Assembly: GCF_036057275.1 (NCBI RefSeq)
Contig: NZ_CP107945.1
Coordinates: 558,001-622,000 of the forward strand
Direction: 5' to 3'
DNA length: 64,000 bases
Origin: Streptomyces sp. NBC_00390
GTDB lineage: Bacteria; Actinomycetota; Actinomycetes; Streptomycetales; Streptomycetaceae
How positions within the stretch are numbered: the stretch's first letter is position 1; every line of letters starts with the position of its first letter. Positions 15,020 through 64,000 of this stretch are shown in pieces. A program made the position numbers and the translations under genes. The notes under the pieces were generated by a model that was not told the DNA's origin, ran no database searches, and saw nothing but the letters and a program-made list of their open reading frames with translations.

Positions 15020-15165
15020 GGGTTTCGCCCTTCACCGGGGCCCGTCGGGCTTCCCGGTCACGGATGGTCAGGTACGTATGCGGAGGATCGCGACACGCTG
15101 GACCCGGCCCCGGAGGAAGCCGGCGGGGCTCGGGTACCGGCGGCCGCGCCGCCAGGGATCAGGTC

Positions 15166-17646: not shown

Positions 17647-18010
17647 GCTTGCTACTCCCCACAACCTCGTAAGAGGCCACTCGGCGCACCGCACGGCATC
17701 CGCATGCCGCGTGAAACGTGCATGGCGTTCTTCATCGTCGTCGGCAGGATCCGGCCCACTGCCGGGGTTTTCGACGTCCCTTCACAGTGGATCTCTTGCC
17801 ATGTGGCCGGATGGCCGGCAGCACGAGGCCGGAGCGCGCGCCCCATGCGAGCCGGTTCTCCCCGACGGAAGATCCGTGCCGGGCACACGCTTTCGGCAGG
17901 GCTTCGCATTCCTGCGGAAGCGGCACCTCCATGAAATGCCGACCTTCAGCGAACAGCCCCATGACGCCCCCCGTACGACACGGCACACACCGGTCCCCCA
18001 CTGGAAGGCT

Positions 18011-18080
18011 TTCGTGCCGTGGGTAGAGATTAGACCCGTCCGCTTCCGACGCTGAGCAAATCTCTGAGATTCGTGCCGTG
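18011..18080. repeat. Two copies of TTCGTGCCGTG flanking an inverted repeat
   Basis: The 11-mer TTCGTGCCGTG occurs at 18011-18021 and again at 18070-18080. Each copy has GAGATT next to it (18026-18031 and 18066-18071). The repeats lie in the regulatory gap upstream of the long operon and look like binding sites for a regulator. Confidence 0.45.
18059..18071. promoter_or_regulatory. Perfect 13-base inverted repeat, putative operator
   Basis: AATCTC-T-GAGATT is a perfect palindrome around a central T. It lies about 410 bases upstream of the vWA gene start and near the minus-strand TAATCT element, a layout consistent with an operator. The regulator is not identified. Confidence 0.4.
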
Positions 18081-18343
18081 AATTGCACGCAGCGATGCCG
18101 GAATGATGCACCCATCACGCCATCAACCTGCACACGCGTTCGAGATCATTCGCACAGGAGGCCACTTCGACGCCGCAAAGAGTCGACGGAAACATACCGG
18201 TCGGACGGGACGAAAACCTTGATCAGACCCCGGCCGCTCCTTGCCCAATCAATTGACCTGCACAAAAGCGCCTCAGCGGCCGGGAGATGGCCGCAAGAAA
18301 AAGAACTCGCCGCGGCGATCGAGGCCGTGACGTCCGAGTGTCA

Positions 18344-18379
18344 CGAGGGGGCGCATTTGAAAATTTCGTGCGCCCCTCG
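18344..18379 (-). terminator. Strong hairpin terminator after the nucleosidase-helicase operon
   Basis: The arm CGAGGGGGCGCA (18344-18355) pairs with TGCGCCCCTCG (18369-18379), leaving one bulged G and a 13-base A/T-rich loop. It starts about 50 bases after the stop of the last gene of the upstream operon, on the same strand. It should insulate the two adjacent operons. Confidence 0.7.
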
Positions 18380-18432
18380 GTAATTCCGTGCGCTCCTTCC
18401 GCTCAGAGCCTCACGCCACTGGTTGCGCCATG

Positions 18433-19644
18433 TCACCTCAGACGGGCCAACTGGTCGGCCAGGGCCCGTCTGCCCGCACCGGCGGCGGCCCGGCGAAGGT
18501 CGTCGATGCCCAGGATCCCCAGGCCGAGCTGGTGGGAGATCCGGGCGATCTGCGCCTCGACCGTGTCCCGGTCGGTGCGGGCCCGCGCGCCGAGGTAGGA
18601 GTCGATCCGCTCGAGGAGGGCGCGGCGGCGTACTCGTTCGTCGGCGCACCAGACCTGGAAGAAGGACGTGCCGAGCACCACGAACGAGCCGAGCTTGGTG
18701 AGGGGCAGACCGCCGCCCGTACCGAAGCCGGTGCCCGGGATCGTGACCCGCCAGGCACCGTGCTCGCCCCTGCTCGGCTGGTACCGGGCCAGGTTCCGGG
18801 TGCTGAGCCACCGGGCCGCTCTGTTCCGGAAGTCCTGGCGTTCGGCGTCCACTTCTTCCGCTTCGAAAGCGCTGAAGACCTCGGGCGTGGTCTCGCATGC
18901 GGCGGTGAGTCCGTCGTCGGCCTCGTCGGCGGCCTGCGTGTAGACGAGGTGCCGGACCCTTTCGCCCGGGGCCACCGCCCGCACGATGTACGCCGGCATG
19001 AACACGTACTCCTCGTGGAGGCTTTCCGGGTTGTCGATCCGTTCCGGCAGGTTGTAACGGTCACGGTCGGGGTTGCGGGCCAGCTCGAAGAGTGCTTCCC
19101 GGCGGAAGCAGCGGGTGGCGCTCAGGACGTTCAGCGGGGGCCCGTCCCGCCGGTCGAGCGCCTCCTGGACACAGTCGCCGGACAGGAAGGTGACCTTGCG
19201 GACGTCGTAGTGGGCGCGGGTGAGCGGGCGGCACGCGAAGGCGTCGAAGTACAGCTTGCGCCGGTCCTGCCGGGTGTGCGTGTAGCGCACCTTGTCGCGT
19301 ACGGACCGGTGCCCGAGCTCGGTGAGGGCGATGCGCCCCCGCGACTCCTTCACATGGCCGATGGCATGGAGAAACCGCAGCGCCTGGCGGACCAGGGACG
19401 GATCGAGCGCGAAGAACGAGGCGAGTGATTCGGCCGTGTCGAGCTCGGCTTCCGCGATACCGCGTTCGAGGAAGCGGTCGATCAGCTCGTACGGTTCTCC
19501 CTCGGTGACCTCCGCCCTCACCTCGACGCACCACACGGGCAGCAGGACCGAGTAGATGCGGGTCGGTACGACCTCCAGGGTGTACGCCGCGTGTTCCAGG
19601 GCGCGCTCCTCGGGGTAGGGCATCAGTCTCGCCCGGCTGTTCAC
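18433..19644 (-). CDS. Winged-helix-containing protein of a helicase defence-like operon
   Basis: A 403-residue protein with a GTG start overlapping the helicase gene stop (GTGA at 19644-19641). I do not recognise a named family. Residues ~70-135 read as a winged helix (SFFALDPSLVRQALRFLHAI, then ESRGRIALTELG). The rest is soluble alpha/beta with no membrane segment; motifs such as FLSGDCVQEAL, ATRCFRREAL and EEYVFMPAYIVRAV stand out. It ends in a leucine/arginine-rich helical region. The tight coupling to the helicase implies a shared function; it may be a specificity or regulatory subunit. The hairpin terminator follows. Bacterial proteins of this size beside UPF1-like helicases are often of unknown function, so no activity is proposed. 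Confidence 0.7.
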   Translation of the reverse strand: MNSRARLMPYPEERALEHAAYTLEVVPTRIYSVLLPVWCVEVRAEVTEGEPYELIDRFLERGIAEAELDTAESLASFFALDPSLVRQALRFLHAIGHVKESRGRIALTELGHRSVRDKVRYTHTRQDRRKLYFDAFACRPLTRAHYDVRKVTFLSGDCVQEALDRRDGPPLNVLSATRCFRREALFELARNPDRDRYNLPERIDNPESLHEEYVFMPAYIVRAVAPGERVRHLVYTQAADEADDGLTAACETTPEVFSAFEAEEVDAERQDFRNRAARWLSTRNLARYQPSRGEHGAWRVTIPGTGFGTGGGLPLTKLGSFVVLGTSFFQVWCADERVRRRALLERIDSYLGARARTDRDTVEAQIARISHQLGLGILGIDDLRRAAAGAGRRALADQLARLR

Positions 19645-22607: not shown

Positions 22608-24341
22608 TCAGACTCCTCGGGGAAGCTCGTCGCATGCGCTGCGCAGCGCGGCCCCGAAAGCGCGGGGGGCCGGTCTCTCGGCGGGGTCCTGAGCCAGGGC
22701 GGCGCGTACCGCGCGATCGACGGGCTCCGGCACGTCCGGCACATGGGCGCGCAGGGGCAGTGGTGTGCCGGGGAGAGGAAGGTGTCCGGTGATGAGGCGG
22801 TAGGCGAGCGCGCCGAGCTGGTGGACATCGGTCCAGGCTCCGGGGCGTTCGCCCCAGGCGCGCCGCCGCTGCTCGGGGGCCTGGTGTTCGGCGGGGCCTT
22901 CCCCTGGCCGCGGGGGGCGGGTGGCCAGTCCGAGGTCACGCAGCACGAGGCGGCCGTCGTCGTGGGCGATGACGGCGGACAGGCCGAGACACCGATGGGT
23001 GACGCCGTGGTCGTGCAACGCGGCCAGCGTGCCGCACAGTCCGGCGAGGCCGGTGAGCAGTCGGTGCTGCCGCCATGGGTCGACCGGCTCGCCCTCCCTG
23101 CCGAGGGCGGCGTGGAGGGTCTGACAAGGTGCCCCGGTGGTCCGCAACACCGGCCAGCCGACAGCAAGCACGTCGGTGCGGCCGTGCGAGGTGAGCGAAC
23201 TGGTTCCGGGAAGGCCGCCGATCCGCTGCCGCAGACGCGTGAGCAGCTGGTGTTCGTCGGCCAGTGCCCGCTTCGCCGCCCGCACTTCGGGGGTGTCCCG
23301 TCGGGCCTCGATCTGACGGAGCCAGACGTACCGGGAGGCCGACTGCCCGGTGAGGTCCAGCCGGCGTGCCAGTGCCTGACGCCGGATCAGGGAACGGTCG
23401 GAGGAGGGGTGTTCCTCCAGGTACTCGTCGTGAAGCAGGTACAGCCCGTCGGGGACCTCGACCTCCTCACCGCCGCGCCATCGCCCGGTCTCCGGTGACG
23501 GGGACGTGGGAGCGGAGACGAAGACGACGGCCGAGCCGCGGGCGGGCGGGTCCTCCACGGCCGGCCGGTCGCTTCCGACGGGGAGTTCGCGCAGGGTGGA
23601 GAAGGCGAGGGCGGCAGCGTTCCTGGCCGCGATTCTCTGCCACCCCTCGGCGTCGGCGTCGTACTTCCGGCCGTCCGCCCTGTCGCTGATACCGCGGACG
23701 ATCAGGGCGGGCAGTGCCGCGTTGAGGTGGGCGGCGTGAGCCACGCCGGCGCCTTCCATCTCGATGGCGACGGCGTCCTGGTAGTGCTGCCGCAGCTGCC
23801 GTTTCAACGGTGAGTCCGCCGAGTTGAGGACGACTTCACCGGCGGCTATGGGCTTGAGATGGACTGAGGGGTGCCGGTCCCCGGGGGAGGGCGGCAGCAG
23901 CCGGGTCCACGAACCGGTCCTGCGGACGTGCTTGGCCAGCTGCTCCAGCTCGTGGCGTATGGGCCAGACCCTCGGCCGGGCCAGGAACCGGCCGTTCTCC
24001 TCCTTGCCACCGTGGTAGGCGTAGACGTGCGTGGCCACCACGACGTCGCCGAGCTGGATGTCGTCCTTGAGCGCTCCGGCCACTCCGACGAAGACCACCG
24101 CGCGCGGGCGGAACAGGCGGACGGCCCGCTCGGTCAGCACCGCCGCCGCCTGGTTGCCGTCCCCGATCTCAGCCAGGGCCACCTGCCACGGCGTGCCGTC
24201 CAGCCAGCCGATCTCGAACAGCGTGCCGGCGCTGTGGCTGTGTGTCCGTAAGGCGGCCAGATGCGCCCGAACGGCCTCGTACTCCACCTCCAGGGCAGTG
24301 AGCACGACAAGCGTGTCGCCCTGACTGTTCGCCTCAGCCAC
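22608..24341 (-). CDS. Nucleoside phosphorylase/nucleosidase fused to a pseudokinase
   Basis: About 577 residues. The N-terminal ~260 residues have the MTAN/PNP fold: TALEVEYEAV, VVFVGVAGALKDDIQLGDVVV, AIEMEGAGVAHAA, and the RGISDRAD motif whose Asp is the general acid of 5'-methylthioadenosine/SAH nucleosidases. The C-terminal ~270 residues resemble a protein kinase but read THRCLGLSAV where HRD is expected and RDLGLA at DFG, so the catalytic Asp is missing. The GTG at 24341 is chosen because GGGGGA lies five bases upstream and the nucleosidase fold begins just after it; the frame is open further upstream. It may cleave a nucleotide second messenger or nucleoside pool on infection, with the pseudokinase as sensor. 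It is the first gene of a three-gene operon. Confidence 0.82.
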   Translation of the reverse strand: MAEANSQGDTLVVLTALEVEYEAVRAHLAALRTHSHSAGTLFEIGWLDGTPWQVALAEIGDGNQAAAVLTERAVRLFRPRAVVFVGVAGALKDDIQLGDVVVATHVYAYHGGKEENGRFLARPRVWPIRHELEQLAKHVRRTGSWTRLLPPSPGDRHPSVHLKPIAAGEVVLNSADSPLKRQLRQHYQDAVAIEMEGAGVAHAAHLNAALPALIVRGISDRADGRKYDADAEGWQRIAARNAAALAFSTLRELPVGSDRPAVEDPPARGSAVVFVSAPTSPSPETGRWRGGEEVEVPDGLYLLHDEYLEEHPSSDRSLIRRQALARRLDLTGQSASRYVWLRQIEARRDTPEVRAAKRALADEHQLLTRLRQRIGGLPGTSSLTSHGRTDVLAVGWPVLRTTGAPCQTLHAALGREGEPVDPWRQHRLLTGLAGLCGTLAALHDHGVTHRCLGLSAVIAHDDGRLVLRDLGLATRPPRPGEGPAEHQAPEQRRRAWGERPGAWTDVHQLGALAYRLITGHLPLPGTPLPLRAHVPDVPEPVDRAVRAALAQDPAERPAPRAFGAALRSACDELPRGV

Positions 24342-24643
24342 GAAGTCCCCCGTCGCCCTCGGTCGCCGGCCCTGCCTGCGGCCACGGGGCTGTGCGAACA
24401 GCGGCCGCATCAGGCCCATGTTCTGCACCTGTCGACACCCGTCAACGCGACGCAGGGCACGCCACTGTAGCGGCACCGCGGCCCAGCTCACACTCGGTCG
24501 ATCTCGAGCAGAAGTCACGCCATATCGAAGCGTTTTCGACCGCTCATATGATCTGATTCTGACGCTTTGTGGCCGGTTCAGAGATTCGGGACAGCGACGG
24601 CCACACGCCGTGAGGGAGATCCACCGCGCCCTTCCTCCCGGGG
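24342..24643 (-). promoter_or_regulatory. Promoter-bearing gap upstream of the nucleosidase operon
   Basis: About 300 bases without a gene. The stretch 24510-24600 is relatively A/T-rich. On the minus strand TACAGT at 24464-24469 is a fair -10 hexamer; the matching -35 (TGTGAG, 17 bases upstream) is weak. No hairpin terminator for the upstream membrane-protein gene is evident, so read-through from that gene remains possible. Confidence 0.35.
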
Positions 24644-25216
24644 CTACGTCACAGGCGGCTCGACGCGCGCCCCCTTCACGTCCGCGTAGAGCACGATCTG
24701 CCACCCCAGCACGGCGATCACCACAAGTTCGGCCAGGGACACGGCAAGCAAGGGTGCCCCCACCGGACCGACCGTCCAGAACACGACGACGGCGGCCACC
24801 GGCGCCAGACAGAAGGCGAGCAGGTCGACGGCGAGTTGGAGCCACTTACGGGAGGTCCGTCGGTGGTCGTTGCGGTGGGCGACCTCCCAGCCGAAGACGC
24901 ACGCGTCACCACGACCGTCGGTCAAGGCCACTAGCTGCGGGCGTAGTTCATCTCGCACGTAGCGACCGATTGCGGAGATCTTGTCGTCGTTGACCAGGTA
25001 GGTCCACCCGAGCACCACCGAGACCGGCGGCAGCAGCAACAACAACTCGAGCCGTCTGTCCCCCTGAAGAGCGGCGGCGATGACCGCAGCCATGGAGGCG
25101 AGCGTGGCGTAAAGGAGGTTGTCGCGAAAGCCGATACGCGCGCGCTGTTCGTCCTTGATCCGCTCGTACTCGGTGATCAGCAGTCCTGCAGCTGTGACTT
25201 GCTCGCCGGCCGCCAT
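24644..25216 (-). CDS. Small four-helix membrane protein
   Basis: A 190-residue protein. A soluble N-terminal helix (LLITEYERIKDEQRARIGFR) leads into two hydrophobic helices (NLLYATLASMAAVIAAAL and LELLLLLPPVSVVLGWTYLV), a polar loop of ~60 residues, and a second pair (LAVDLLAFCLAPVAAVVVFW and PLLAVSLAELVVIAVLGW). The layout of two helical hairpins with a short polar tail resembles membrane proteins found beside NTPase-based defence genes in Streptomyces, but I cannot name the family. It lies 302 bases upstream of the nucleosidase-pseudokinase gene on the same strand, so it may be a membrane effector of that unit or an independent gene. The start at ATG 25216 has a GGGGGA-type site close upstream. 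Confidence 0.65.
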   Translation of the reverse strand: MAAGEQVTAAGLLITEYERIKDEQRARIGFRDNLLYATLASMAAVIAAALQGDRRLELLLLLPPVSVVLGWTYLVNDDKISAIGRYVRDELRPQLVALTDGRGDACVFGWEVAHRNDHRRTSRKWLQLAVDLLAFCLAPVAAVVVFWTVGPVGAPLLAVSLAELVVIAVLGWQIVLYADVKGARVEPPVT

Positions 25217-34768: not shown

Positions 34769-34882
34769 GCGACCGGAAGCCGTACGGGCCGGATGCGGTC
34801 AGCGATGGTCCTTCCGTTCGGACTTCTTGCCGTCCTTGCCGAAGGTCACCCATTCACCGTCGGGCTGACCAGACTTGTCGGT

Positions 34883-34916
34883 CGTATCATCGATAGCGCT
34901 GGACCGTATCATCGAT
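34883..34916. promoter_or_regulatory. Tandem operator CGTATCATCGAT before the TetR-type gene
   Basis: CGTATCATCGAT occurs at 34883-34894 and at 34905-34916, exactly 22 bases apart (two helical turns). The first copy forms TATC-N3-GATA, a near-palindrome. The second ends four bases before the ATG of the regulator gene, and TATCAT within it (34907-34912) could be a -10 element giving a leaderless transcript. The layout suggests autoregulation. Confidence 0.6.
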
Positions 34917-34919
34917 CCC

Positions 34920-35627
34920 ATGGCAGTGCCCGACACGCTGCGCGCGGCGATGATCGAGGCCGCGGAGCAGCAGCTCGCGACCTCCTCCGACAACGACATC
35001 GCCACCCGGGCGGTCTGCGAGGCGGTCGGCGTGACCCAGCCGGTGCTCTACCGGCTGTTCGGCGACAAGCACGGCCTTCTCGACGCCGTCGCCGACCACG
35101 GCTACGAGCGCTATGCCGCGCTCAGGGCTGCGACGCAGGAGCAGACCGGCGACCCGGTGACAGACCTCCGTGCGGGCTGGGACGGCCACCTGGCGTTCGC
35201 GCAGGAGTACCCGGCGCTCTACCAGCTGATGTTCGCCCCTCGGCCGTGGTCCCGCTCGAAGGCCCGGGAGCGCGTGTTCGACCTGCTCGTCGCGGCACTC
35301 GTACGCTGCGCGGCCGCGGGCGCGCTGATCACAGAGCCGAGGACCGCCGCCCAGCTGATCCTCTCCGCCAACGTCGGCATCGCACTCAACCACATCGCCG
35401 CACCGGCGCTCTTCGACGACCCCGCACTCTCCCACCGCATGCGCGATGCCGTGTTCTCTCACGTCCTCACCGAGGCAACCGCACGTGGGGAGACCGACCC
35501 CCTGAACAGCGCCGCACTGTGCCTGCGCGCGCAGCTCGCCCTTGTCGGCACCCAGGCCCTCGAGCCGGCCGAGACCGCACTGCTCCAGCGTTGGCTCGAG
35601 CGGATCACACGATCCGGCCGGCAGTGA
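34920..35627 (+). CDS. TetR/AcrR-family transcriptional regulator
   Basis: A 235-residue regulator. The DNA-binding helix-turn-helix is near the N-terminus (IATRAVCEAVGVTQPVLYRLF followed by GDKHGLLDAV). The C-terminal ~170 residues form a helical ligand-binding domain with GWDGHLAFAQEYPALYQLM and LILSANVGIALNHIAAPALF. The ATG at 34920 is chosen over a TTG upstream because the protein fold begins there and the tandem operator lies directly before it; no Shine-Dalgarno sequence is seen, so translation may be leaderless. The neighbouring alpha/beta hydrolase is convergent, not divergent, so the regulated target may be itself or elsewhere. Confidence 0.9.
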   Translation: MAVPDTLRAAMIEAAEQQLATSSDNDIATRAVCEAVGVTQPVLYRLFGDKHGLLDAVADHGYERYAALRAATQEQTGDPVTDLRAGWDGHLAFAQEYPALYQLMFAPRPWSRSKARERVFDLLVAALVRCAAAGALITEPRTAAQLILSANVGIALNHIAAPALFDDPALSHRMRDAVFSHVLTEATARGETDPLNSAALCLRAQLALVGTQALEPAETALLQRWLERITRSGRQ

Positions 35628-35630
35628 CGC

Positions 35631-35662
35631 GGCCGGCGCCGCTCACCACCTCACGCCCGGCC
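35631..35662. terminator. Possible bidirectional hairpin between convergent genes
   Basis: GGCCGGCGC (35631-35639) can pair with GCCCGGCC (35655-35662) with one bulged base around a 15-base loop. It lies just past the TetR-type gene stop and overlaps the last codons of the convergent hydrolase gene. No T-run follows. Confidence 0.35.
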
Positions 35663-36430
35663 GGTCACGAACGAGTCGAGCGCCGCGGTCAGCTCCGCCG
35701 GCTTCTCCAGGGGCAGTTCATGGCCGGCGTCCACGATCCGGACCACCGCGTCCGGGTAGGCCTTCGCCATCCGCAGCATCTGTGAGACGGGCAGCTGGAT
35801 GTCGTGGTAGCCGTGCACCAGCAGGGTGGGCGTGCGGATCTCGCCGACCCGGTCGAGGATGTCGAAGTTCCGCATGGCGCCGTAGCACGTCATGACCACC
35901 TCCCGCGGCGTGGCCGAGGAGGCCCGGATGTACTCGCGGATCTCCTCGCGCGGGTAGCCGGGGGCGAAGGCCCGCTGGATGTTGGTGGCGACGAACAGCT
36001 TGAACGGCACCAGCGTGGATGCCGCCATCAGCAGCCCCCGCCCCCGGCTGTAGGTCATCCGGCTGATCGAGTTCACCAGCACCAGGCGCTCGACCCGCTC
36101 GGGGTGAGCCAGGGTGAGGGTCTGCGCGATCATCCCGCCCATGGAGTGGCCGACGGCTGTGAACCGGTCGACCTTCAGGTGGTCGAGGAGGGCGAGGACG
36201 TCCCCGGCCAGCTCCGCGATCGTCCGTGCCCCCGACCCGCTGCTCTCGCCGTGCCCACGCAGGTCGAGCCGGATCACCCGCCGGTTCCGGGCGAAGTGTT
36301 CCACCTGGTGGTCCCAGCGGTGCCGGTTGGCCGTCCAGCCGTGGATGAACACCAGGGGCACGGCGTCGCCGTCGCGCGGGCCCTCGTCGTCGTACGTCAG
36401 TGCTGCGCCGTCGACATCGAGCTGCGGCAT
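35651..36430 (-). CDS. Alpha/beta hydrolase
   Basis: A 259-residue hydrolase. The oxyanion segment is FIHGWTANRHRWDHQ, the nucleophile elbow is VGHSMGGM, the acid is in LLVHGYHDIQLP and the histidine in VDAGHELPLEKP, so the triad is complete. This is the general fold of esterases, epoxide hydrolases and C-C hydrolases; substrate is not identifiable. The ATG at 36430 follows AGGAGG six bases upstream. It is transcribed in the same direction as the PKS cluster and lies 62 bases beyond its last gene, so it may belong to it, or be independent. Confidence 0.88.
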   Translation of the reverse strand: MPQLDVDGAALTYDDEGPRDGDAVPLVFIHGWTANRHRWDHQVEHFARNRRVIRLDLRGHGESSGSGARTIAELAGDVLALLDHLKVDRFTAVGHSMGGMIAQTLTLAHPERVERLVLVNSISRMTYSRGRGLLMAASTLVPFKLFVATNIQRAFAPGYPREEIREYIRASSATPREVVMTCYGAMRNFDILDRVGEIRTPTLLVHGYHDIQLPVSQMLRMAKAYPDAVVRIVDAGHELPLEKPAELTAALDSFVTGRA

Positions 36431-36492: not shown

Positions 36493-37629
36493 TCACCGTC
36501 GCTTGCCGAGGAAGTCGAGGATGTGCCCGAACACATCGAGAGCCGCGCCCCGGCCGAGGAACGTGTCGAGGTGGCCGTAGCCGGGAATCTCGGTGTACGC
36601 CACGTCCAGTTGCGGCTGCCGGCGGGCGAGGACGTCGTGACAGAGCTTCTGGGAGTCCAGCCACAGCCCGTTGTCGCTGCCCGCCAGCAGCAGGACCGGG
36701 GTGTCGATGCGGCCGGCCGCGTCCAGCGCGTTCTGCGGCAGCGCCCGGTAGCGCAGGTCGCCGTCGTGCCAGCGCACCACGCTCCGGGCGAGCTCGATCC
36801 GGCGCAGATGCGGCAGGATCCACAGCGGCGCGGGGCCGAGCAGCTCCGCCAGCCGGTTGTGGGTGGCTTCGGACAGGTGCTCGTGCACGAACAGCGAGGC
36901 GCCCGTGCCCCACGCCGAGTTGTGCAGGATCTGGCACGTCGGATCCGGGCAGCTCGCCTTCCGGGATGCCAGCGCGAACAGCGGCGTGTACTTCGACCAG
37001 AAGCCCACCTTGCGGAAGTCGACCGGCACGTGGTCGATCCGGGACTTCAGCAGCTCCCCTGCCACCGACATCCGCAGCGAAGTGCGGCCCGCGAGCTTCG
37101 GTGTCAGGAACACGCCCTGCGACACCACCCCCGCGAGCCCGGGCACCAGCCCCGCCGCCATGCTCAGCGACAGGGTGAGCGAGCCGATGCAGTGCGCGAC
37201 CACGAACAGCGGCCGGTCGCCGATGCGTTGGCGGATGTGGGAGACGGCCTCGGGGATGTCGTACAGCGCGACGTCGTCATATGTGTACTTCTGGCCTGTC
37301 TCGTTGTACGGCAGCCGGCAGCTGCCCCGCCAGTCGAGCAGCCACGGCTCGTAGCCGTCGTCGAGCAGGACGTCGACCAGGTTGCGGGTCTCGGGCAGCA
37401 GGAACATGTCGGAGGACGCGGTGTGCCCGTGCAGGAGCAGCACGGCGGGCCGGTCCGCCTCGCCGCTGTCGATCCGGGTCAGGCCGAGGCGGACGCCGTC
37501 CCCCGCCCGGAAGGGAATCTCCTCGACGGCCGCCGGATCGAGGCGGTGGTGGAGCGGGCGCAGGGCCGTGGTGGTCCTGACCTTGCGGATCATCGGCCTG
37601 GTCCGGGAGTTGGTGGTTCTGAGGATCAT
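36493..37629 (-). CDS. Alpha/beta hydrolase-fold protein with Cys nucleophile
   Basis: A 378-residue protein starting at an ATG that overlaps the stop of the ACP-reductase gene (ATGA). Fold markers are LLLHGHTASSDMFLLPETRN, a nucleophile elbow reading VVAHCIGSLTLSL, and LLLAGSDNGLW plus GYGHLDTFLG for the acid and histidine. At the nucleophile the usual Ser is Cys, as in polyhydroxyalkanoate synthases and in the hydrolase-like proteins associated with cholesterol-oxidase-type enzymes. It could therefore be an acyltransferase or thioesterase-like enzyme that acts on the polyketide product. The coupling to the reductase gene makes it part of the biosynthetic operon. Confidence 0.82.
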   Translation of the reverse strand: MILRTTNSRTRPMIRKVRTTTALRPLHHRLDPAAVEEIPFRAGDGVRLGLTRIDSGEADRPAVLLLHGHTASSDMFLLPETRNLVDVLLDDGYEPWLLDWRGSCRLPYNETGQKYTYDDVALYDIPEAVSHIRQRIGDRPLFVVAHCIGSLTLSLSMAAGLVPGLAGVVSQGVFLTPKLAGRTSLRMSVAGELLKSRIDHVPVDFRKVGFWSKYTPLFALASRKASCPDPTCQILHNSAWGTGASLFVHEHLSEATHNRLAELLGPAPLWILPHLRRIELARSVVRWHDGDLRYRALPQNALDAAGRIDTPVLLLAGSDNGLWLDSQKLCHDVLARRQPQLDVAYTEIPGYGHLDTFLGRGAALDVFGHILDFLGKRR

Positions 37630-40091
37630 CGGTTGCGCTCCGTGAGGGTGGGGTTGCGGCGCAGGTCGAGCAGGTCTGCGGCGGCCCGGGCGAAGGGGCC
37701 GAGCAGGCCGCGTCCCATTTCCAGGCCGAACCAGGCGAGCCAGGCGAGCTTGGCGGCCCGCTTCTCCTGGCCGGTCAGGCGCGGGTCGACCTCGATGCCG
37801 TCGATCTGGTCGCGGATGTAGCTGTCCGCGGGCACGACGAGCTCGCCCGCCAGGTGGGCCGGTTCGCCCTCGCGGCCGATCTCGACACTCAGCGCGCGGG
37901 TCTGCCGCCACAGGTCGCGGCGTGCCCGGGCGTACTTGCGGCCCTCCAGCCACCAGCGTCCGCCGTCGGCATCGCGCAACGACAGTCGGTAGCAAAGGAG
38001 TTGGTGCCGCATGCCGTGCTGCTGCGGGATGCCGTCCTCGGGGCGGATCCAGACGTCGCCACGCTCCACGACCACCGGCTCGGAGTGCACTGCCGCACAC
38101 CTCAACTCGCCGCTGACGTCAACCCTGCGCTCCTTCACCAGCTGGTACATGCTCGCGATGGAGAGGGTGAGCGCCATCGAGCAGGGAGTGTCGGCACCGG
38201 CGCCGACCGGGCCCACGCCGCCCTCTGTCGTCTCGGAGAACCACAGGTACGGCTGGTCGTCCTTGTGCGGCAGCCGGGCGAGTCCGTCCCGGGCGAGCCG
38301 CTCGAACGTCCTGAGCTGTGCCTGGGTGTCGTAGCGGGCCGCGGGTTCGAGTCCGAGCGCGTCGACGAGTGCGGCGGTGCGGTCGTCGACGGCCGCCGGG
38401 CCCTTCAGTGTCGCCTCGCACAGCTTGAGGGCGGTGGGGCTCTGCAGAACCCTGCCCAGAAAAGCCAGTTCCGGCACCGGATCGGCCTCCAGGCGGGCCA
38501 GGGCGTCGGCACGCCACTCGTCCCACTCCTGGACGCGCACATGCATGCCGCCGAGCGCCATGTCCCGTACGACGTCGTCGAGGGTGTTGGGCACGCCGGT
38601 CAGGTTGTAGTCGTAGCCCCAGGCGTCGGGTTCGCAGATGACGCCGACCGCGACCCGGCTGACCCAGTCCACGGGGGCGGCGTTCAGGTAGCGGAAGGCG
38701 GGGACGGTGCGGAAGCGGCCGAAGGCCGAGGTGAGACCGCTGCTGAGGTCCTGGGGGTTGTAGGCGCCGGTCTTGGTGTGGCCGCCGATGCCGCCCGGGC
38801 GCATCGCGGTGACCACCAGGCCGTGGTCACGGGCCCGGCGCAGCGCGACTTCGGCTGCCCATTTCGTCTGGTCGTAGCCCGCGATGAGGCGGTCGACGTG
38901 GGCGAGCGGGTCGTCCTCGCCCATGGAGGGGATGCCGACCTCGTTGAAGACCGCGATCGAGGAGATGTGGTGCAGCGGCTTGGGCCGGCCCGCCGCAGCC
39001 AGTTCGGCCAGGGTCAGCGCACCGACGACATTGCTCTGCCGCAGCGACTGGTAGCCGCGCAGGAAGTCCACGGCCGCCGCCACGCCGACGACGCTGTCCA
39101 ACTCGTGGGCGAGTGTGTGCCACAGGTCGTCGGACAGGCCGAGCTGCGGGCGCCGGATGTCGCCGGGGAGCGCGGTCACCCGGCGGCGGATCTCCGACGA
39201 CCAGGGCAGCTCGTAGCTCTTGAGCGCCTCACCGAGCCGGGCGACGGCCGCCTCCTCGTCGGCTGCGCGGACCAGGCAGTAGACGTGGGCGTCGCTGTGC
39301 CGCAGCAGGTCGAGGAGCATGTGGCTGCCGAGGAAGCCGGTGGCGCCGGTCAGCAGGATCCGGCGGGGCGGCAGCGGCTCGGGCGAGCCGGTCCAGGGCA
39401 GGCGGTCGGCGAGGGTGAGGTCGGCAAGGATCTGGTCGAGGTCCTCGCGGCGGGCCACGGAGTGGGGGTCGTCGGCGCTGCCGGGCAGGAGCGTGGTCGC
39501 GACCGCCGGTGGGGTGCGGGGGGCCGGGACGGGGAGCGTGCTCGGCGCGGGGGCCGGGCGGGTGCCTGCGGCGGAGAGCGGGAGGGTGCCCGGGGCCGCC
39601 CCGGTGGCGGGCGCGGTGGCGGCCCGGGTCCCTGAAGTGGCCGTGGTCGGGGGGACGGTCGTGGTCGAAGGGACGGTCGCGGCCCCGGTGGCCTGGAGCC
39701 ATCGCCGGGCGAGGCTGCGTGGCCGGGCGTCGGCGAACACGTCGTCCAGGCCGATCTCCATGCCCAGCTCGCGTTCCAGCGCCGCGACGAGTTCCACGGC
39801 GCGCACAGAGGTGCCCCCGGCGTCGAAGAAGTCCGTGTCGGGCGACAGGTGCCCGTCGGGCAGATGGCGGCCCGCCGCGGCGGCGACGGCGGCGGCCAGC
39901 CGGTCCACGTCCTGGGCCGCCGTGGTGCCGGTACCGGACTCCGTGCCTGTGGCGGTCGGCTGGGGGGCGGCGGTCGTCATGACCTTGGCCAGCAGGTCGG
40001 TCACGCTGAGGCCGACCCCGCCCCGCTCGATCGACTCGCCGGTCGACCGTTGTCCGGCAACAGCCGACCGGTCCTCGTTCACGTCATGCAT
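37626..40091 (-). CDS. ACP-thioester reductase with extra C-terminal domain
   Basis: An 821-residue protein. Residues ~60-130 are an acyl carrier domain with DAGGTSVRAV (Ser95 for phosphopantetheine). An Ala/Thr/Pro-rich linker (~135-205) leads to a thioester-reductase SDR domain: ILLTGATGFLGSH (245-257), the catalytic YDQTK (Tyr406, Lys410), and later YNLTGVP. Such domains release acyl chains from a carrier as aldehydes or alcohols with NAD(P)H. From ~560 there is an additional domain (MALTLSIASMYQLVKERRVD, HQLLCYRLSLRDADGGRWWL) resembling the region beside cholesterol-oxidase-type enzymes; its role is unknown. The gene lies 76 bases after the PKS stop and overlaps the hydrolase gene. It probably terminates the polyketide assembly line. 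Confidence 0.85.
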   Translation of the reverse strand: MHDVNEDRSAVAGQRSTGESIERGGVGLSVTDLLAKVMTTAAPQPTATGTESGTGTTAAQDVDRLAAAVAAAAGRHLPDGHLSPDTDFFDAGGTSVRAVELVAALERELGMEIGLDDVFADARPRSLARRWLQATGAATVPSTTTVPPTTATSGTRAATAPATGAAPGTLPLSAAGTRPAPAPSTLPVPAPRTPPAVATTLLPGSADDPHSVARREDLDQILADLTLADRLPWTGSPEPLPPRRILLTGATGFLGSHMLLDLLRHSDAHVYCLVRAADEEAAVARLGEALKSYELPWSSEIRRRVTALPGDIRRPQLGLSDDLWHTLAHELDSVVGVAAAVDFLRGYQSLRQSNVVGALTLAELAAAGRPKPLHHISSIAVFNEVGIPSMGEDDPLAHVDRLIAGYDQTKWAAEVALRRARDHGLVVTAMRPGGIGGHTKTGAYNPQDLSSGLTSAFGRFRTVPAFRYLNAAPVDWVSRVAVGVICEPDAWGYDYNLTGVPNTLDDVVRDMALGGMHVRVQEWDEWRADALARLEADPVPELAFLGRVLQSPTALKLCEATLKGPAAVDDRTAALVDALGLEPAARYDTQAQLRTFERLARDGLARLPHKDDQPYLWFSETTEGGVGPVGAGADTPCSMALTLSIASMYQLVKERRVDVSGELRCAAVHSEPVVVERGDVWIRPEDGIPQQHGMRHQLLCYRLSLRDADGGRWWLEGRKYARARRDLWRQTRALSVEIGREGEPAHLAGELVVPADSYIRDQIDGIEVDPRLTGQEKRAAKLAWLAWFGLEMGRGLLGPFARAAADLLDLRRNPTLTERNR

Positions 40092-40167
40092 GGGAGCCCT
40101 TCATGGTGCGCGCTGTCCGTTCCGCCACTGCTGCCGAAGGCCGGAGCCGGTCCGGTCACTGCTGCTG

Positions 40168-54648
<14,481 letters not shown>

Positions 54649-54823
54649 CTGGAAAGGTGTCCTCGTGAAGTGGGGCTCAGGCGGTTTCCGTACGACCGGC
54701 ACGGCTGGTACGCCCCCCGGTGTACGGCGGACTCGGCGACGTACCACCGTGCAACCGGCGTTCGGCCAGTACGGTCGTTGTGCCGCCGCCGGGCGCGATC
54801 GCGCGCTCCGGCGGCGGGTGACG

Positions 54824-56548
54824 TCATCTCAGGGCGGGGACGCCGACCACCGAAAGGGTGCCGGCGAGGTACGCCTCCCGGGAGGCGTGGCGCTGGATCT
54901 TCCCGCTGGACGTCTTGGGGATGGTGCCAGGGTGTACGAGCACGATGTCGTGCACCGACAAGCCATGGGCCGCGCCGATCGAGCTGCGGATCAGATCGGT
55001 GATCTTCTCGGACTCGCCTGCCGCCTCCGGGGCCGTTTCGGCGACGACGACGGGCTGTTCGCCCTGCACTCCGCTGTCCACGGAGAACGCCGCGGTGCAG
55101 CCCGGCCGCAGCGCCCAGTGGGACATCTCGGCGGACAGCTCCAGGTCCTGCGGGTAGTGGTTGCGTCCGTCGATGACCATCAGGTCCTTCAGGCGTCCGG
55201 TGACGAACAGTTCACCGCCACGCAGGAAGCCGAGGTCGCCGGTCCGCAGGAAACGGCCCTGACGGTCCTTCAGAGTGGCCCGGAAGGTCTCACGGGTGGC
55301 GAGGGCATTGCGCCAGTAGCCCTTGGCGACACTCGCGCCGCCGACCCAGATCTCGCCGACCTCGCCCTCGGGCAGTTCCTCCTGCCGCTCGGGATCGGCG
55401 ATCACCACGGTCATGCCGGGGCCGGGTCGGCCGGAGCTGACCGCCGCCGCGTCCGCCGCACCGGCGTGCGGCCCGCTCTCGGCTGCCTCGATCAGAGCGG
55501 GCGGGGCCGTGACCGAACTGCCGGTGACCATCAGGGTGGCCTCGGCCAGGCCGTAGCACGGGTACAGGGCCTCACGGCGGAAGCCGGCCGCACCGAAGGT
55601 CTCGGTGAACCGCCGCAGGGTGGCGGCCCGCACCGGTTCGGCGCCATTGAAGGCGACCTTCCACCGGCTCAGGTCCAGGCCGTCGAGGAGGTCGGGCGTG
55701 GCGTGCTTCAGGCACAGCTCGTACGCGAAGTTGGGGCCGCCGCTGGTGTGCGGGCGGTAGCGGTCGAGGGCGGTCAGCCAGCGCGCGGGCTGCTGCAGGA
55801 AGTGCAGCGGCGAGAAGAGCGTGGCGGTGACGCCGAGGTGGACCGTGTTCAGGACCGGGCCGATGAGGCCCATGTCGTGGTAGACGGGCAGCCAGCTGAC
55901 GAACAGTTCGTGGTCGTACTCCGCGATCGTGTCCGGGGTGTGGCCCATCCGCTCCGTGATGACCCGCTGGTTGTCCAGCAGGTTCCCGTGGGTCACCATC
56001 ACGCCACGCGGGGCGGAGGTGGAGCCGGAGGTGTACTGGAGGAAGGCGACCGAGTCGGCGGTGAGGTCGGGTTCGCGCCAGGAGTCGGCCGCGTCGTCGG
56101 GGATGTCCTCGGTGGCGACGCAGGTGATCCCGTCCAGTTCGGGCAGGTGTTCCACCATGGCGCCGAGGGCGGCGATCACCTCACGGCCGCCCAGGATCAC
56201 CTTGGCGTCCGCGTCGGCGATCAGACGCCTCATCCGGGTCACGGCCCGGTGGTTCTGCGACCGCCCCTGCGGGGGCACGCCGGGCACGGCGACGACCCCG
56301 GCCGAAAGACAGCCCAGGTAGCCGCAGATGAACTCGAGCCCGGGCGGGTACAGCAGCATGGCGCGGGAACCGGCCAGGCCGCGCGCCTGCAGCCAAGCGG
56401 CGACGGCTCGGGACCGGTCGGCCAGACGCCCGTAGGAGAGGTCCTGAATCTCTCCGTCACAGTCTCCGGTGACGAGATAGCGGTATGCGGTCCGGTCGGG
56501 CTGTTGCGAGGCGTGCGTGGTCAGCAGATCGACCAGTGAACTTGCCAT
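54824..56548 (-). CDS. Fatty acyl-AMP ligase (FAAL)
   Basis: A 574-residue adenylate-forming enzyme. The P-loop is YTSGSTSAPRG, followed by SWLPVYHDMGLIG, YGLAEATLMVTG, the TGDLGFL and GRLKDLMVIDGRN motifs with NHYPQDLE, and the C-terminal lysine motif PKTSSGKIQR. The NHYPQD(L/I)E signature distinguishes fatty acyl-AMP ligases from CoA ligases. It activates a fatty acid as an adenylate and transfers it to a carrier protein; the free-standing N-terminal ACP of the neighbouring PKS is the natural acceptor. The ATG at 56548 has GGTGAG nine bases upstream. It is the first gene of the operon, 175 bases before the PKS start. Confidence 0.93.
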   Translation of the reverse strand: MASSLVDLLTTHASQQPDRTAYRYLVTGDCDGEIQDLSYGRLADRSRAVAAWLQARGLAGSRAMLLYPPGLEFICGYLGCLSAGVVAVPGVPPQGRSQNHRAVTRMRRLIADADAKVILGGREVIAALGAMVEHLPELDGITCVATEDIPDDAADSWREPDLTADSVAFLQYTSGSTSAPRGVMVTHGNLLDNQRVITERMGHTPDTIAEYDHELFVSWLPVYHDMGLIGPVLNTVHLGVTATLFSPLHFLQQPARWLTALDRYRPHTSGGPNFAYELCLKHATPDLLDGLDLSRWKVAFNGAEPVRAATLRRFTETFGAAGFRREALYPCYGLAEATLMVTGSSVTAPPALIEAAESGPHAGAADAAAVSSGRPGPGMTVVIADPERQEELPEGEVGEIWVGGASVAKGYWRNALATRETFRATLKDRQGRFLRTGDLGFLRGGELFVTGRLKDLMVIDGRNHYPQDLELSAEMSHWALRPGCTAAFSVDSGVQGEQPVVVAETAPEAAGESEKITDLIRSSIGAAHGLSVHDIVLVHPGTIPKTSSGKIQRHASREAYLAGTLSVVGVPALR

Positions 56549-61360: not shown

Positions 61361-61642
61361 TCATTCGCCGCGCGGCAGCAGGGAGCCCAGCGGGCCGAGG
61401 TCGATGTTGAGGTCCTCGGGCCGCAGACCGAACTTGTCCAGAAGGGTTCCCATCCGGTCCTCGAGCAGCATGAGCGTGAGACCGATGCGCTCCTCCTGGT
61501 CAGGAGTGAGGTCACCAGTCTCCACCCGGCGCAGGGCCTGCCGTTCCATGAGCTGGCGGAGCAGTTCCACGACGGTCAGCACCAGCTGGGCCAGGTCACG
61601 CTCCACGGTGTCGGGATCGAGGTCCACGTGGCGCCGGCTCAT
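61361..61642 (-). CDS. gvpK: Gas vesicle protein K
   Basis: A 93-residue protein with the GvpK pattern: LDPDTVERDLAQLVLTVVEL, RQALRRVETGDLT, QEERIGLTLMLLEDRM and FGLRPEDLNIDLGPLG. GvpK is an accessory protein needed for gas-vesicle assembly in characterised gvp operons. Its ATG overlaps the gvpS stop by four bases. It is the last gene of the operon, followed by a 547-base gap with an insertion-sequence scrap. Confidence 0.94.
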   Translation of the reverse strand: MSRRHVDLDPDTVERDLAQLVLTVVELLRQLMERQALRRVETGDLTPDQEERIGLTLMLLEDRMGTLLDKFGLRPEDLNIDLGPLGSLLPRGE

Positions 61643-61842
61643 GTGTCTTCCCCGAAGGGAGAGGCCACGACCGGTCCGACTGAGCAGATCAGCGCCTTCA
61701 GATCGACCCGGACGAGATCGACGTCCGCGATACTCAGCGTCAGATCCCCCGTGATCACGACTCCGCCCGCCAGCAGCCGGTCGAGCAGGTCGACGAGCGC
61801 CAGCCGGCGCTGCGCGAGCGGTGGCGTGGCCTGCTGCGTCAT
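61639..61842 (-). CDS. gvpS: Gas vesicle structural protein GvpS (GvpA/J family)
   Basis: A 67-residue protein of the GvpA/J/S family: RLALVDLLDRLLAGGVVITG followed by DLTLSIADVDLVRVDLKALI, the conserved core of small gas-vesicle shell proteins. The ATG at 61842 is chosen because it overlaps the gvpL stop by four bases; a longer frame to 61881 would overlap that gene more. The assignment as gvpS rather than gvpA or gvpJ rests on its position between gvpL and gvpK, as in S. coelicolor. Confidence 0.88.
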   Translation of the reverse strand: MTQQATPPLAQRRLALVDLLDRLLAGGVVITGDLTLSIADVDLVRVDLKALICSVGPVVASPFGEDT

Positions 61843-62612
61843 ACCTCGTCCACCTCCCTGGCGAACGAGTACGGTGCCCAAGGGCCGGTCAGCTCCAACC
61901 GGACCCCTCGGCCCGCCGGTGCCAGCCGCCCGACCTCCGCGACGAAGGCCTCACTCCGCTCGCGTGGTACGAGATACGCGGCATTCAGTACGTTGCCCCG
62001 TGGAACACCCGGCAGCCTGGCGTCCTGGGGGTGGTGGACCAGACCGGCCTCGGCGAGGCGCGTCAGCTTCGCATGAAGCGTGTGCGACAGCGTGACGGCC
62101 TCGGACCACCGGCTCTGACCGGCTTCCCGCCGGCGCAGCCGCTGGCGCAGGTAGTCCCGGCCATTGGCCGGAGCGTCGCCAGACGCCCGGTCGTCGCGCG
62201 GTGCCTCCGCCGCGCCGTCGTCCGCGTACACCTTCACCCCCCACTCGACCCGCCCGTCCAGACGGTCCAAGGACCTGACGAACTGCTCTCGGCCCGAGTC
62301 GAGGAGGCGCCGTACGCCGTCGTGGTCATGGCAGACGGTCGCGAGACGCAGCGGCAGCGGGGTCGTGACCTGTGCGAGTGCGCCGATCACAGCCTCATGC
62401 CCCCGTGCTGTGGCGGTGAGCCAGTCCAGATCCTCCAGATGCGCGCGAAGGGCTTCGCCGTGGAAGTCCTCGGCCGGTACAGCACTCACCACGGCGGTCA
62501 GACCGTCGTGGATGAGCAGCTGCGGCCGCGCACCGCCGACGCCTCGCACATCCTGGGGCAGAGCCGTGCCGAAGGGCAGGGTCACGGCGTAGACGTAGCA
62601 CAGGTCGGTCAT
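61839..62612 (-). CDS. gvpL: Gas vesicle protein L/F
   Basis: A 257-residue GvpL/GvpF family protein. It opens with LCYVYAVTLPFG, has the conserved LTAVVSAVPAEDF strand and PLRLATVCHD motif, and continues with WGVKVY and the C-terminal LTGPWAPYSF signature of the family. These proteins are accessory components of gas-vesicle assembly. The ATG overlaps the gvpJ stop by four bases and its own stop overlaps gvpS. Confidence 0.93.
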   Translation of the reverse strand: MTDLCYVYAVTLPFGTALPQDVRGVGGARPQLLIHDGLTAVVSAVPAEDFHGEALRAHLEDLDWLTATARGHEAVIGALAQVTTPLPLRLATVCHDHDGVRRLLDSGREQFVRSLDRLDGRVEWGVKVYADDGAAEAPRDDRASGDAPANGRDYLRQRLRRREAGQSRWSEAVTLSHTLHAKLTRLAEAGLVHHPQDARLPGVPRGNVLNAAYLVPRERSEAFVAEVGRLAPAGRGVRLELTGPWAPYSFAREVDEV

Positions 62613-62923
62613 GCGGAATCCGCCTCCAGAGCGGCGATGCGCTGTCGCAACCGTTCGTTCTCCTCGGACAGTTCACGCCGGCGCGCCCCGGAGGACAGCG
62701 CCGGGTCCTCCTGCCACCAGTCGATGCCCATCTCCTTCGCCCTGTCCACCGAGGCGACGACAAGGCGGAGTTTGATGGTCAGCAGTTCGATGTCGAGGAG
62801 ATTGATGCGGATGTCCCCGGCGATCACGATGCCCTTGTCGAGCACGCGCTCCAGGATGTCCGCCAGGTTGGCCCCGGAGGCGCCGGAGAGGTAGGGGTCC
62901 GGCAGCCGGCTCGGGGACGTCAT
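62609..62923 (-). CDS. gvpJ: Gas vesicle protein J (GvpA/J family)
   Basis: A 104-residue protein with the GvpA core: ANLADILERVLDKGIVIAGD and IRINLLDIELLTIKLRLVV, then a charged helical tail (ENERLRQRIAALEAD). The extra C-terminal tail and the position before gvpL support gvpJ rather than gvpA. It overlaps both neighbours by four bases, so the cluster is translationally coupled. Confidence 0.9.
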   Translation of the reverse strand: MTSPSRLPDPYLSGASGANLADILERVLDKGIVIAGDIRINLLDIELLTIKLRLVVASVDRAKEMGIDWWQEDPALSSGARRRELSEENERLRQRIAALEADSA

Positions 62924-64000
62924 CGGCTGTCCCGGGCCGGGGAGCCGGCATACGCGGTCTCGTACGCCTCGTCATCCTCGTCCTCGGGCGCGTACGCCGA
63001 CTCGTCGTCGGGGAGGTCCTCGTCCGGTTCATCCTGGCGGTGCTCGTCCTGCGTGGTGAAGTCCTCGTCGTCAGACGGCTCTTCGCCCTCCGCCTCGCCG
63101 TGCACCTCGTCGTCCGCGGCGTCGTACCCGTACTCGTCGTCCTCGTACCCGTCCTCCGCGGCCTCCTCCTCCGCCACGGCTTCCTCATGGGTACGGACCA
63201 CCTCACCGTCCGCGATCTCGCCGCGCCAGCCGTTCTCGGCCTCACCGCGCATCGAGATGTGGCGTGCGAAGTTCTTGAGATCGAGCCGCACCCGGCGGCC
63301 CTGGGCGCGCCAGATGTTCCCCGTCTTCTCGAACAGCCCCTTGGGGTAGTACTCGATGACCAGCAGAACGCGTGTGAGCGTGTCGCCCAGGGCGTGGAAG
63401 GTGACGACGCCCTTGGTCGTGCCCTTGGCGCCTTCCGACGTCCAGGCCATGCGGGTGTCGGGGATCTGTTCGGTGGTGCGGGCCTTCCAACTGCGGTTGG
63501 ACCAGAAGACCTTGAGGTTCCAGTCCGATGTGGTGTCGTCCGCGGCTGCCGCGCTCGTGACTCCCTTGGCGAAGGCGGGGAAGTCCTGGTAACGGGTCCA
63601 CTGGTCGTAGGCCTCACGCACAGGCACTCCGACGTCCACGGATTCGAGGATGACGGTAGGTTTCCTCCCGCCCCCGCCCTTTCTGCCCTTCTTCCCCGAT
63701 GAGGCGATGCTCTTGACGGCGTCGACGACATTCTCCTTCAGCCGAGCGGCGCCGAGTTCCACGGCGGTGCGCACGGGTGCCTTGCCGTCGGCGAGTTTGC
63801 GGCCGCCGTCCAGGGCCAGGCGGGCGAAGCCGGGGCTGCGGCCGTCCGCAATGTCGTTGAGCTTGACGGTGCTCTCGCCGAGCTTGCGGCCCAGCGCCGC
63901 GAGGAGGCGTTCGGTCTGTGCAAGGGCGTAGCCCTGGAGTTCGGACTTGAGCCGGTCGACCGCCGCCGGGTCCAGGGAGCCCGGCAGGGTGTTGCCGGTG
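62920..64000 (-). CDS. gvpZ: SRPBCC-domain gas-vesicle protein GvpZ (5' end beyond window)
   Basis: About 359 codons are visible; the frame is open to position 64000, so the start lies outside. The N-terminal visible part is helical (RLKSELQGYALAQTERLLA). A SRPBCC/START-like domain follows: VPVREAYDQWTRYQDFPAF, DWNLKVFWSNRSWKAR, GVVTFHALGDTLTRVLLVIE and GEIADGEVV. The last ~80 residues are extremely acidic (runs of Asp/Glu), probably disordered. Position directly upstream of gvpJ matches gvpZ of the S. coelicolor cluster. The name is by position; the function of this protein in assembly is unclear. Confidence 0.8.
   Translation of the reverse strand, partial: TGNTLPGSLDPAAVDRLKSELQGYALAQTERLLAALGRKLGESTVKLNDIADGRSPGFARLALDGGRKLADGKAPVRTAVELGAARLKENVVDAVKSIASSGKKGRKGGGGRKPTVILESVDVGVPVREAYDQWTRYQDFPAFAKGVTSAAAADDTTSDWNLKVFWSNRSWKARTTEQIPDTRMAWTSEGAKGTTKGVVTFHALGDTLTRVLLVIEYYPKGLFEKTGNIWRAQGRRVRLDLKNFARHISMRGEAENGWRGEIADGEVVRTHEEAVAEEEAAEDGYEDDEYGYDAADDEVHGEAEGEEPSDDEDFTTQDEHRQDEPDEDLPDDESAYAPEDEDDEAYETAYAGSPARDSR

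What the first reader, a model, noticed from the sequence alone, without database searches (positions are those of the whole stretch)
36493..56548. FAAL-PKS-C-FkbH-thioester reductase line lacking any adenylation domain
A condensation domain is followed by an FkbH-like HAD domain, not by an adenylation domain, and the next protein supplies ACP and reductase. FkbH-type enzymes in other pathways attach a glyceryl unit from 1,3-bisphosphoglycerate to an ACP. One testable model is glyceryl loading on the separate ACP, acyl transfer by the C domain to its hydroxyl (ester), and reductive release, giving a lipid-polyketide glyceride or aldehyde. Whether this FkbH-like domain is a glyceryl transferase cannot be told from sequence.
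Basis: partly seen in the sequence, partly recalled or inferred. Interest (0 to 1): 0.65.

Follow-up and report, generated by a model that had tools for sequence, protein, structure and literature searches.

The report
Foxicin-type polyketide line with glyceryl cap
This is a Streptomyces natural-product gene cluster of an already published family (the foxicin family) that probably builds a short branched fatty chain, links it to a sugar-derived three-carbon unit and releases it by reduction; its closing part also appears on other, different assembly lines.

Summary
In detail: FAAL, then a PKS ending in C-FkbH, then ACP-thioester reductase, with no amino-acid adenylation domain. It is not new as a cluster. 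Gene order, domain order, gene sizes and an odd dehydratase motif match the foxicin (fox) cluster published in 2017, whose authors already proposed glyceryl loading by the FkbH domain. Two published labels do not fit this family: "A domain" reads as FAAL, "PCP-TE" as ACP-thioester reductase plus an unannotated beta-barrel domain. What I add: (1) C-NEX-FkbH // ACP-TR-barrel // hydrolase is a closing cassette found on four kinds of upstream layout, with catalytic motifs kept; (2) the adjacent "esterase" has a cysteine nucleophile in 29 of 29 distinct related sequences compared; (3) the barrel occurs elsewhere with GMC oxidoreductases and patatins.

The parts
54824..56548 (-). Fatty acyl-AMP ligase (FAAL), 574 aa; equivalent of foxBI
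40168..54612 (-). PKS ACP-KS-AT-DH-KR-ACP-KS-AT-DH-KR-ACP-C-NEX-HAD-GNAT; equivalent of foxBII; the start at ATG 54612 is my choice (open frame reaches 54747)
41818..43110 (-). Condensation domain, motif HHAVSDL, atypical (92.6 bits, 18th of 20 Condensation stretches in the genome)
40213..41727 (-). FkbH region: N-terminal extension (NEX, about 41233-41727), HAD (40798-41229), GNAT-like (40213-40797); boundaries mine
40168..40212 (-). Short glutamine tract (CAG/CAA repeat) at the very end of the PKS
37626..40091 (-). ACP (39702-39905), thioester reductase (about 38256-39359) and C-terminal beta-barrel domain X (about 37629-38258); equivalent of foxBIII
36493..37629 (-). Alpha/beta hydrolase with Cys at the nucleophile position (AHCIG), 378 aa, ATGA overlap with the gene before; equivalent of foxEI
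35651..36430 (-).

Best explanation
A fox-family assembly line. Membership (about 0.95): the five genes foxBI-BII-BIII-EI-EII are present in order. Mechanism (inferred): the FAAL adenylates a short, probably branched acid and loads the first ACP; two modules each add an extender (probably methylmalonyl), reduce and dehydrate; the FkbH region takes a three-carbon glyceryl unit from 1,3-bisphosphoglycerate, dephosphorylates it and puts it on the ACP of the next protein; the atypical C domain esterifies the polyketide onto a glyceryl hydroxyl; the thioester reductase releases an acyl-glyceraldehyde (or, after a second reduction, an acylglycerol). The barrel domain X and the Cys hydrolase then act on that product, most likely holding it and moving the acyl group to an acceptor, which in the foxicin producer could be an amine. 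Shown here: inventory, order, motif conservation, portability of the closing cassette. Inferred: every chemical step.
For: Same domain order as published for the fox lines ([A]-[ACP-KS-AT-DH-KR-ACP-KS-AT-DH-KR-ACP-C-FkbH]-[PCP-TE], foxEI 378 aa, foxEII 259 aa) and 378 and 259 aa here; the same HxxxGxxxxS anomaly in the first DH. A locus of the same family in S. olivochromogenes A53, a species on the paper's list (other strain). Motifs of C (18 of 18 loci covering it), HAD (19 of 19), GNAT SCR (19 of 19), TR (20 of 20) and the ACP serine (18 of 18) are kept down to 51-73% domain identity. The cassette C-NEX-HAD-GNAT // ACP-TR-X // hydrolase sits on four kinds of upstream layout: separate FAAL plus two modules (window and the 3 of 3 fox-type loci whose upstream DNA was fetched); fused FAAL plus two modules (G583); KS-AT-ACP loading plus three (G014, G588) or four (G603) modules; a PKS protein without AT (second locus of G185). 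So the closing chemistry does not depend on starter or chain. Precedents: FkbH-T loading plus ester-forming C in vioprolide (passage of PMC8949500; [quoted passage not shown] C-NEX-T-Red making an ester and then an aldehyde in BurF (PMC12304814). Nearest solved TR by sequence is MxaA.
Against: No activity, product or substrate was tested. Foxicin A has an amide to an aminobenzoquinone and no evident glyceryl ester, although single-crossover disruption of foxBII abolished it. The FkbH group has clade-specific changes in HAD motifs I and II. The glyceraldehyde-3-phosphate dehydrogenase genes of this genome are not near the operon, unlike foxGI.
Confidence: 0.6

Rival explanations
1. Foxicin-like amide route: the polyketide is finally carried onto an aromatic or quinone amine; the glyceryl-reductive cassette is a transient carrier or makes part of the ring, and the Cys hydrolase may do the acyl transfer.
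For: The acyl chain of foxicin A (isobutyrate plus two methylmalonate units, two double bonds, one shifted to beta,gamma) matches the two modules and the DH1 anomaly; foxBII disruption abolishes foxicin; Cys at the nucleophile in 29 of 29 distinct related hydrolases compared, Ser in the 4 distant ones.
Against: The cassette also closes three- and four-module lines and a line without AT. Apart from the five genes nothing was shared by three or more of the fetched loci in flanks of about 3-10 kb (its ORF filter missed one known gene, so genes may be missed).
Confidence: 0.25
2. Butenolide route as in malleicyprol: ester, aldehyde, then Knoevenagel ring closure.
For: BurF has C-NEX-T-Red and its chemistry is reconstituted.
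Against: It needs a beta-keto acyl chain; both modules here keep KR and DH motifs, and methylmalonyl-type units are predicted for the fox ATs, leaving no activated methylene.
Confidence: 0.08
3. The FkbH unit is not glyceryl (a different phospho-acid), with the rest of the scheme unchanged.
For: Motifs DGDET and VSNND in 19 of 19 cassette FkbHs against DLDNT/DLDGT and CSKND/CSKNE/VSKND in the three other FkbH relatives compared.
Against: HAD positions and the GNAT SCR motif are kept; the TIGR01686 score is nearly three times the cut-off.
Confidence: 0.15

Closest known systems
Foxicin (fox) cluster, Streptomyces diastatochromogenes Tu6028, KT440882 (PMC5318452; outline with abstract, sections 21-24 and 26, and passages seen)
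   Same: Five-gene order, domain order of the PKS, hydrolase lengths 378 and 259 aa, DH1 HxxxGxxxxS, proposed glyceryl loading
   Different: Authors call the first gene an A domain and the third PCP-TE; in the family seen here they read as FAAL and ACP-TR-barrel. The neighbours I identified in the window (pyruvate carboxylase; TetR, SpoIIE, DUF2000) include no foxG-like gene. KT440882 is not held, so not aligned
Malleicyprol synthetase BurF (PMC12304814; part 1 of 4 of the text, section 5 part 1 of 2, section 6 and passages seen)
   Same: C domain, NEX, carrier, terminal reductase after a fatty acid-polyketide chain; HHxxxDx C motif (from the text)
   Different: By the text BurF has NEX but no phosphatase or acyltransferase subdomain; its hydroxy acid is loaded by BurJ/BurH; a beta-keto chain gives a butenolide
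Vioprolide and corramycin lines (passages of PMC8949500 and PMC10099666)
   Same: FAAL-ACP-C-HAD(FkbH)-T; in vioprolide the C domain makes a fatty acyl-glycerate ester
   Different: No PKS extension between FAAL-ACP and C in the architecture quoted; a peptide follows; no reductive release mentioned in the passages seen
   Same: Barrel domain 18-28% identical to the window's; hydrolase 29-35% identical in the six best non-genus rows, same Cys
   Different: GMC oxidoreductase (or patatin) fused to X in place of the thioester reductase; only a few kb around each were seen

Membership tests
fox (foxicin) cluster family | foxBI-foxBII-foxBIII-foxEI-foxEII adjacent in this order | tested here: met
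fox (foxicin) cluster family | PKS domain order ACP-KS-AT-DH-KR-ACP-KS-AT-DH-KR-ACP-C-FkbH | tested here: met
fox (foxicin) cluster family | DH of module 1 with HxxxGxxxxS | tested here: met
   (HTVFGRTVVS)
fox (foxicin) cluster family | 73-96% protein identity to fox proteins | not testable with these tools
   KT440882 itself was not available to me; nearest named stand-in is S. olivochromogenes A53, 76-88% over four proteins
fox (foxicin) cluster family | sugar-metabolism gene foxGI next to foxBI (listed for the type cluster) | tested here: not met
   the gene upstream of the FAAL is pyruvate carboxylase; GAPDH genes lie elsewhere in the genome. [quoted passage not shown] foxGII and foxGIII were not searched for
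fox (foxicin) cluster family | makes a foxicin | not testable with these tools
   needs metabolomics
FkbH-type glyceryl transferase/phosphatase | TIGR01686 above cut-off with DxDxT, S, K, DD HAD positions | tested here: met
FkbH-type glyceryl transferase/phosphatase | transfers glyceryl from 1,3-bisphosphoglycerate to an ACP | not testable with these tools
   needs biochemistry
Fatty acyl-AMP ligase | closest relatives are FAALs, not CoA ligases or amino-acid A domains | tested here: met
   best 7r7g (named polyketide synthase; a FAAL by recall) 6e-153, FadD23 2e-96, FadD32 2e-95, against 1e-45 for an A-domain protein and 6e-22 for 4-coumarate CoA ligase; NCBIfam FAAL models matched below their equivalog cut-offs
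Terminal thioester reductase | TIGR01746 above cut-off, GxxGxxG and YxxxK | tested here: met
Ester-forming condensation domain | HHxxxD catalytic motif | tested here: met
   18 of 18 loci
Ester-forming condensation domain | hydroxyl acceptor | not testable with these tools
   needs an assay; sequence alone does not tell ester from amide

The most novel reading that the evidence does not exclude
C-NEX-FkbH // ACP-TR-barrel // Cys-hydrolase is a self-contained, portable polyketide off-loading cassette: it caps quite different chains (FAAL-primed, KS-AT-ACP-primed, or from a PKS without AT) with a glyceryl unit as an ester, reduces it off as acyl-glyceraldehyde or acylglycerol, and hands the acyl group to an acceptor through a lipid-holding barrel and a cysteine acyltransferase related to those found with GMC oxidoreductases. 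Foxicin would be one downstream use of it.
Probability: 0.3. Interest if true: 0.65.

Novelty: new member of a known kind. Interest (0 to 1): 0.4.

Why it matters
It ties an orphan-looking line to a published cluster family (17 of 199 genus genomes sampled carry the close form of its barrel domain), questions two domain labels that hide reductive release, and makes the mismatch between the published product and the published assembly line testable. If the portable-cassette reading holds, it is a ready-made way to end polyketide chains as glycerol derivatives.

Tried and rejected
Methoxymalonate use of the FkbH domain: not favoured, because the HAD is fused in the place of an A domain after C and Pfam shows no methyltransferase or acyl dehydrogenase in the five genes. 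Tetronate route: no stand-alone FabH-like gene among the five. Butenolide route: see rivals. Pyruvate carboxylase as a cluster gene: not found in the flanks of the 15 stretches compared (only three fox-type ones reach upstream of the FAAL).

Weak barrel-domain hits in G003, G010, G016 and G020 (E 3.5e-5 to 3.9e-4) were dropped: by eye the loci carry luciferase-like monooxygenase frames, and the match looks like a shadow frame. A first model of the barrel from 12 close sequences failed (pLDDT 46.3); the one used has 31 sequences (pLDDT 82.5). Its search gave no PDB match at E 0.001 or better (best 3.5e-3, a designed barrel); VIA-align rows up to Z 11.2 over residues 3-151 are barrels of many kinds: a barrel, no family. 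The FkbH and hydrolase were not folded. A search for FkbH with FAAL, C domain and thioester reductase listed one paper, on a siderophore without FkbH in its text; foxicin was reached through. A search for foxicin listed 7 further papers with 1-4 mentions each, of which I saw passages of one (PMC13170338); one search added none by its listing of the best 15 of 137.

Full report
What is there. On the minus strand the window carries a compact operon: FAAL (54824-56548), a PKS of about 4,800 residues (to 40168), an ACP-thioester reductase protein (37626-40091), an alpha/beta hydrolase (36493-37629, ATGA overlap with the gene before) and a second hydrolase (35651-36430). Pfam and NCBIfam give KS, AT, DH and KR twice, three ACPs, one Condensation and one FkbH domain in the PKS, ACP and thioester reductase in the next protein, and AMP-binding only in the FAAL. 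Motifs of both KS, AT, DH and KR sets are present; AT1 has GHSQG and YASH, AT2 GHSLG and FASH, and DH1 has HxxxGxxxxS. That YASH-type motifs go with methylmalonyl is recalled; the fox authors predict methylmalonyl for both of their ATs.

What it is. The foxicin paper (PMC5318452) describes foxBI (583 aa), foxBII (4807 aa, same domain order), foxBIII (945 aa), foxEI (378 aa) and foxEII (259 aa), adjacent in the producer and in 21 further strains, and notes the same DH1 anomaly. The window has 574, 4814 to 4859, 821, 378 and 259 aa; in the relatives the open frame of the third protein runs from 774 to 959 aa. The type sequence is not held, so identity to it was not measured; a strain of S. olivochromogenes, a species on the paper's list, carries the family at 77% (PKS), 76% (ACP-TR), 88% (first hydrolase) and 85% (second). 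I therefore file the window as a fox-family cluster. The labels A domain and PCP-TE do not fit the family seen here: the first gene is nearest to FAALs and the third is ACP, thioester reductase and an unannotated domain.

The closing cassette. Searching with the last domain (X) of the ACP-TR protein finds 22 of 199 genus genomes at E 1e-20 or better; 17 matches (own genome included) are 78-100% identical and six are 57-61%, one genome having both (a broken contig such as that of G001, which has the PKS, is not counted). Five of the six divergent loci had upstream DNA. They show the same closing order C-NEX-HAD-GNAT // ACP-TR-X // hydrolase on other lines: a KS-AT-ACP loading module with three (G014, G588) or four (G603) further modules, a fused FAAL with two modules in G583, and a PKS protein without AT in the second locus of G185. 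The sixth, G495, is a 3.4-kb contig with TR, X and hydrolase only. For the fox type, the separate FAAL was seen in the 3 of 3 relatives whose upstream DNA was fetched (L018, L020, L021); the eight named contigs start inside the PKS. Motifs of C, HAD, GNAT, TR and ACP are kept in every locus that covers them (18, 19, 19, 20 and 18 loci, window included); the 20 TR sequences are all different. The second hydrolase was found only in the fox clade.

The barrel domain and the Cys hydrolase. Domain X has no Pfam match above cut-off. A profile from four genus-level and three distant sequences finds 20 of 396 genomes of the phylum, 17 of them outside the class. Of the nine X proteins from those loci that I gave to Pfam (of 25 X matches), six have a GMC oxidoreductase before X, two a patatin, and one an alpha/beta hydrolase after it. 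The model is an antiparallel barrel with C-terminal helices. The hydrolase next to or near X has HCxG at the nucleophile and the YGH histidine in 25 distinct sequences (39 aligned rows, 10 of them second copies of the same gene, 4 distant hydrolases, L049-L052, with GHSMG) and in four more from the divergent loci (for G588 the two motifs were read on two adjoining stretches). Cys in this place is found in acyl-transferring enzymes such as PHA synthases (recalled; a weak PHA synthase match, E 0.00093, is), so foxEI may move acyl groups rather than hydrolyse them. This is an inference.

How it probably works. FkbH loads glyceryl on the ACP of the third protein, C esterifies, TR reduces off. FkbH-T loading and ester formation by C are reported for vioprolide (passages), and C-NEX-T-Red ester formation followed by aldehyde release is reconstituted for BurF, which looks like the same cassette without HAD and GNAT; its authors also suggest that BurF lost these subdomains. 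I had no BurF sequence to align. A butenolide is unlikely here because KR2 and DH2 motifs are intact.

What does not fit. Foxicin A is an amide of an aminobenzoquinone. Its ten-carbon acyl part fits the two modules well, including the shifted double bond that the authors link to the odd DH1, but no glyceryl unit is visible. Either the acyl group is moved from the glyceryl carrier to the amine, perhaps by the Cys hydrolase, or the glyceryl carbons go into the ring, as the authors suggest for a sugar-derived C2 unit. DGDET and VSNND replace DLDNT with CSKND (L014) or CSKNE (L015), or DLDGT with VSKND (L016), in this family, so the loaded unit is not certain.

Limits. The genus sample is 199 genomes, the phylum samples 296 and 396, drawn by the tool, with capped numbers of scored candidates. 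The named-genome scan returned eight loci from short peptide patterns and is not a census. No experiment was possible.

Noticed in passing
window 6257-24845, minus strand: Block of large genes: tubulin-like protein (11177-15019), VWA protein (15166-17694), helicase matching PADLOC MkoA at 2.4e-98 (19641-22607), MkoB match 3.5e-16 (18433-19644), and a phosphorylase-superfamily protein with MkoA and PD-T4-6 matches (22608-24845): a candidate defence island.
   Followed up: partly
window 40168-40212: CAG/CAA repeat giving a glutamine tail at the very end of the PKS.
   Followed up: no
window about 49543-50085 (PKS residues about 1555-1735): Stretch before KR1 that reads by eye like a shrunken enoyl reductase; no Pfam match there; tblastn alignments to several relatives break here.
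   Followed up: no
window 61361-63774, minus strand: Gas vesicle gene gvpK (Pfam GvpK 9.5e-35) and a Polyketide_cyc-fold protein (2.9e-17) nearby.
   Followed up: no
window 34875-35627, plus strand: TetR regulator convergent with the last hydrolase gene; no relative of it was grouped with genes of the other loci by my ORF clustering.
   Followed up: partly
L055 and L057 (genome G185): One genome holds both a fox-type locus and a PKS without AT with the same closing cassette.
   Followed up: partly
L045 1408-2586 and L047 619-2511: L045: relative of the Cys hydrolase directly after an FAD-linked oxidase-like frame (by eye). L047: barrel and hydrolase fused in one frame.
   Followed up: no
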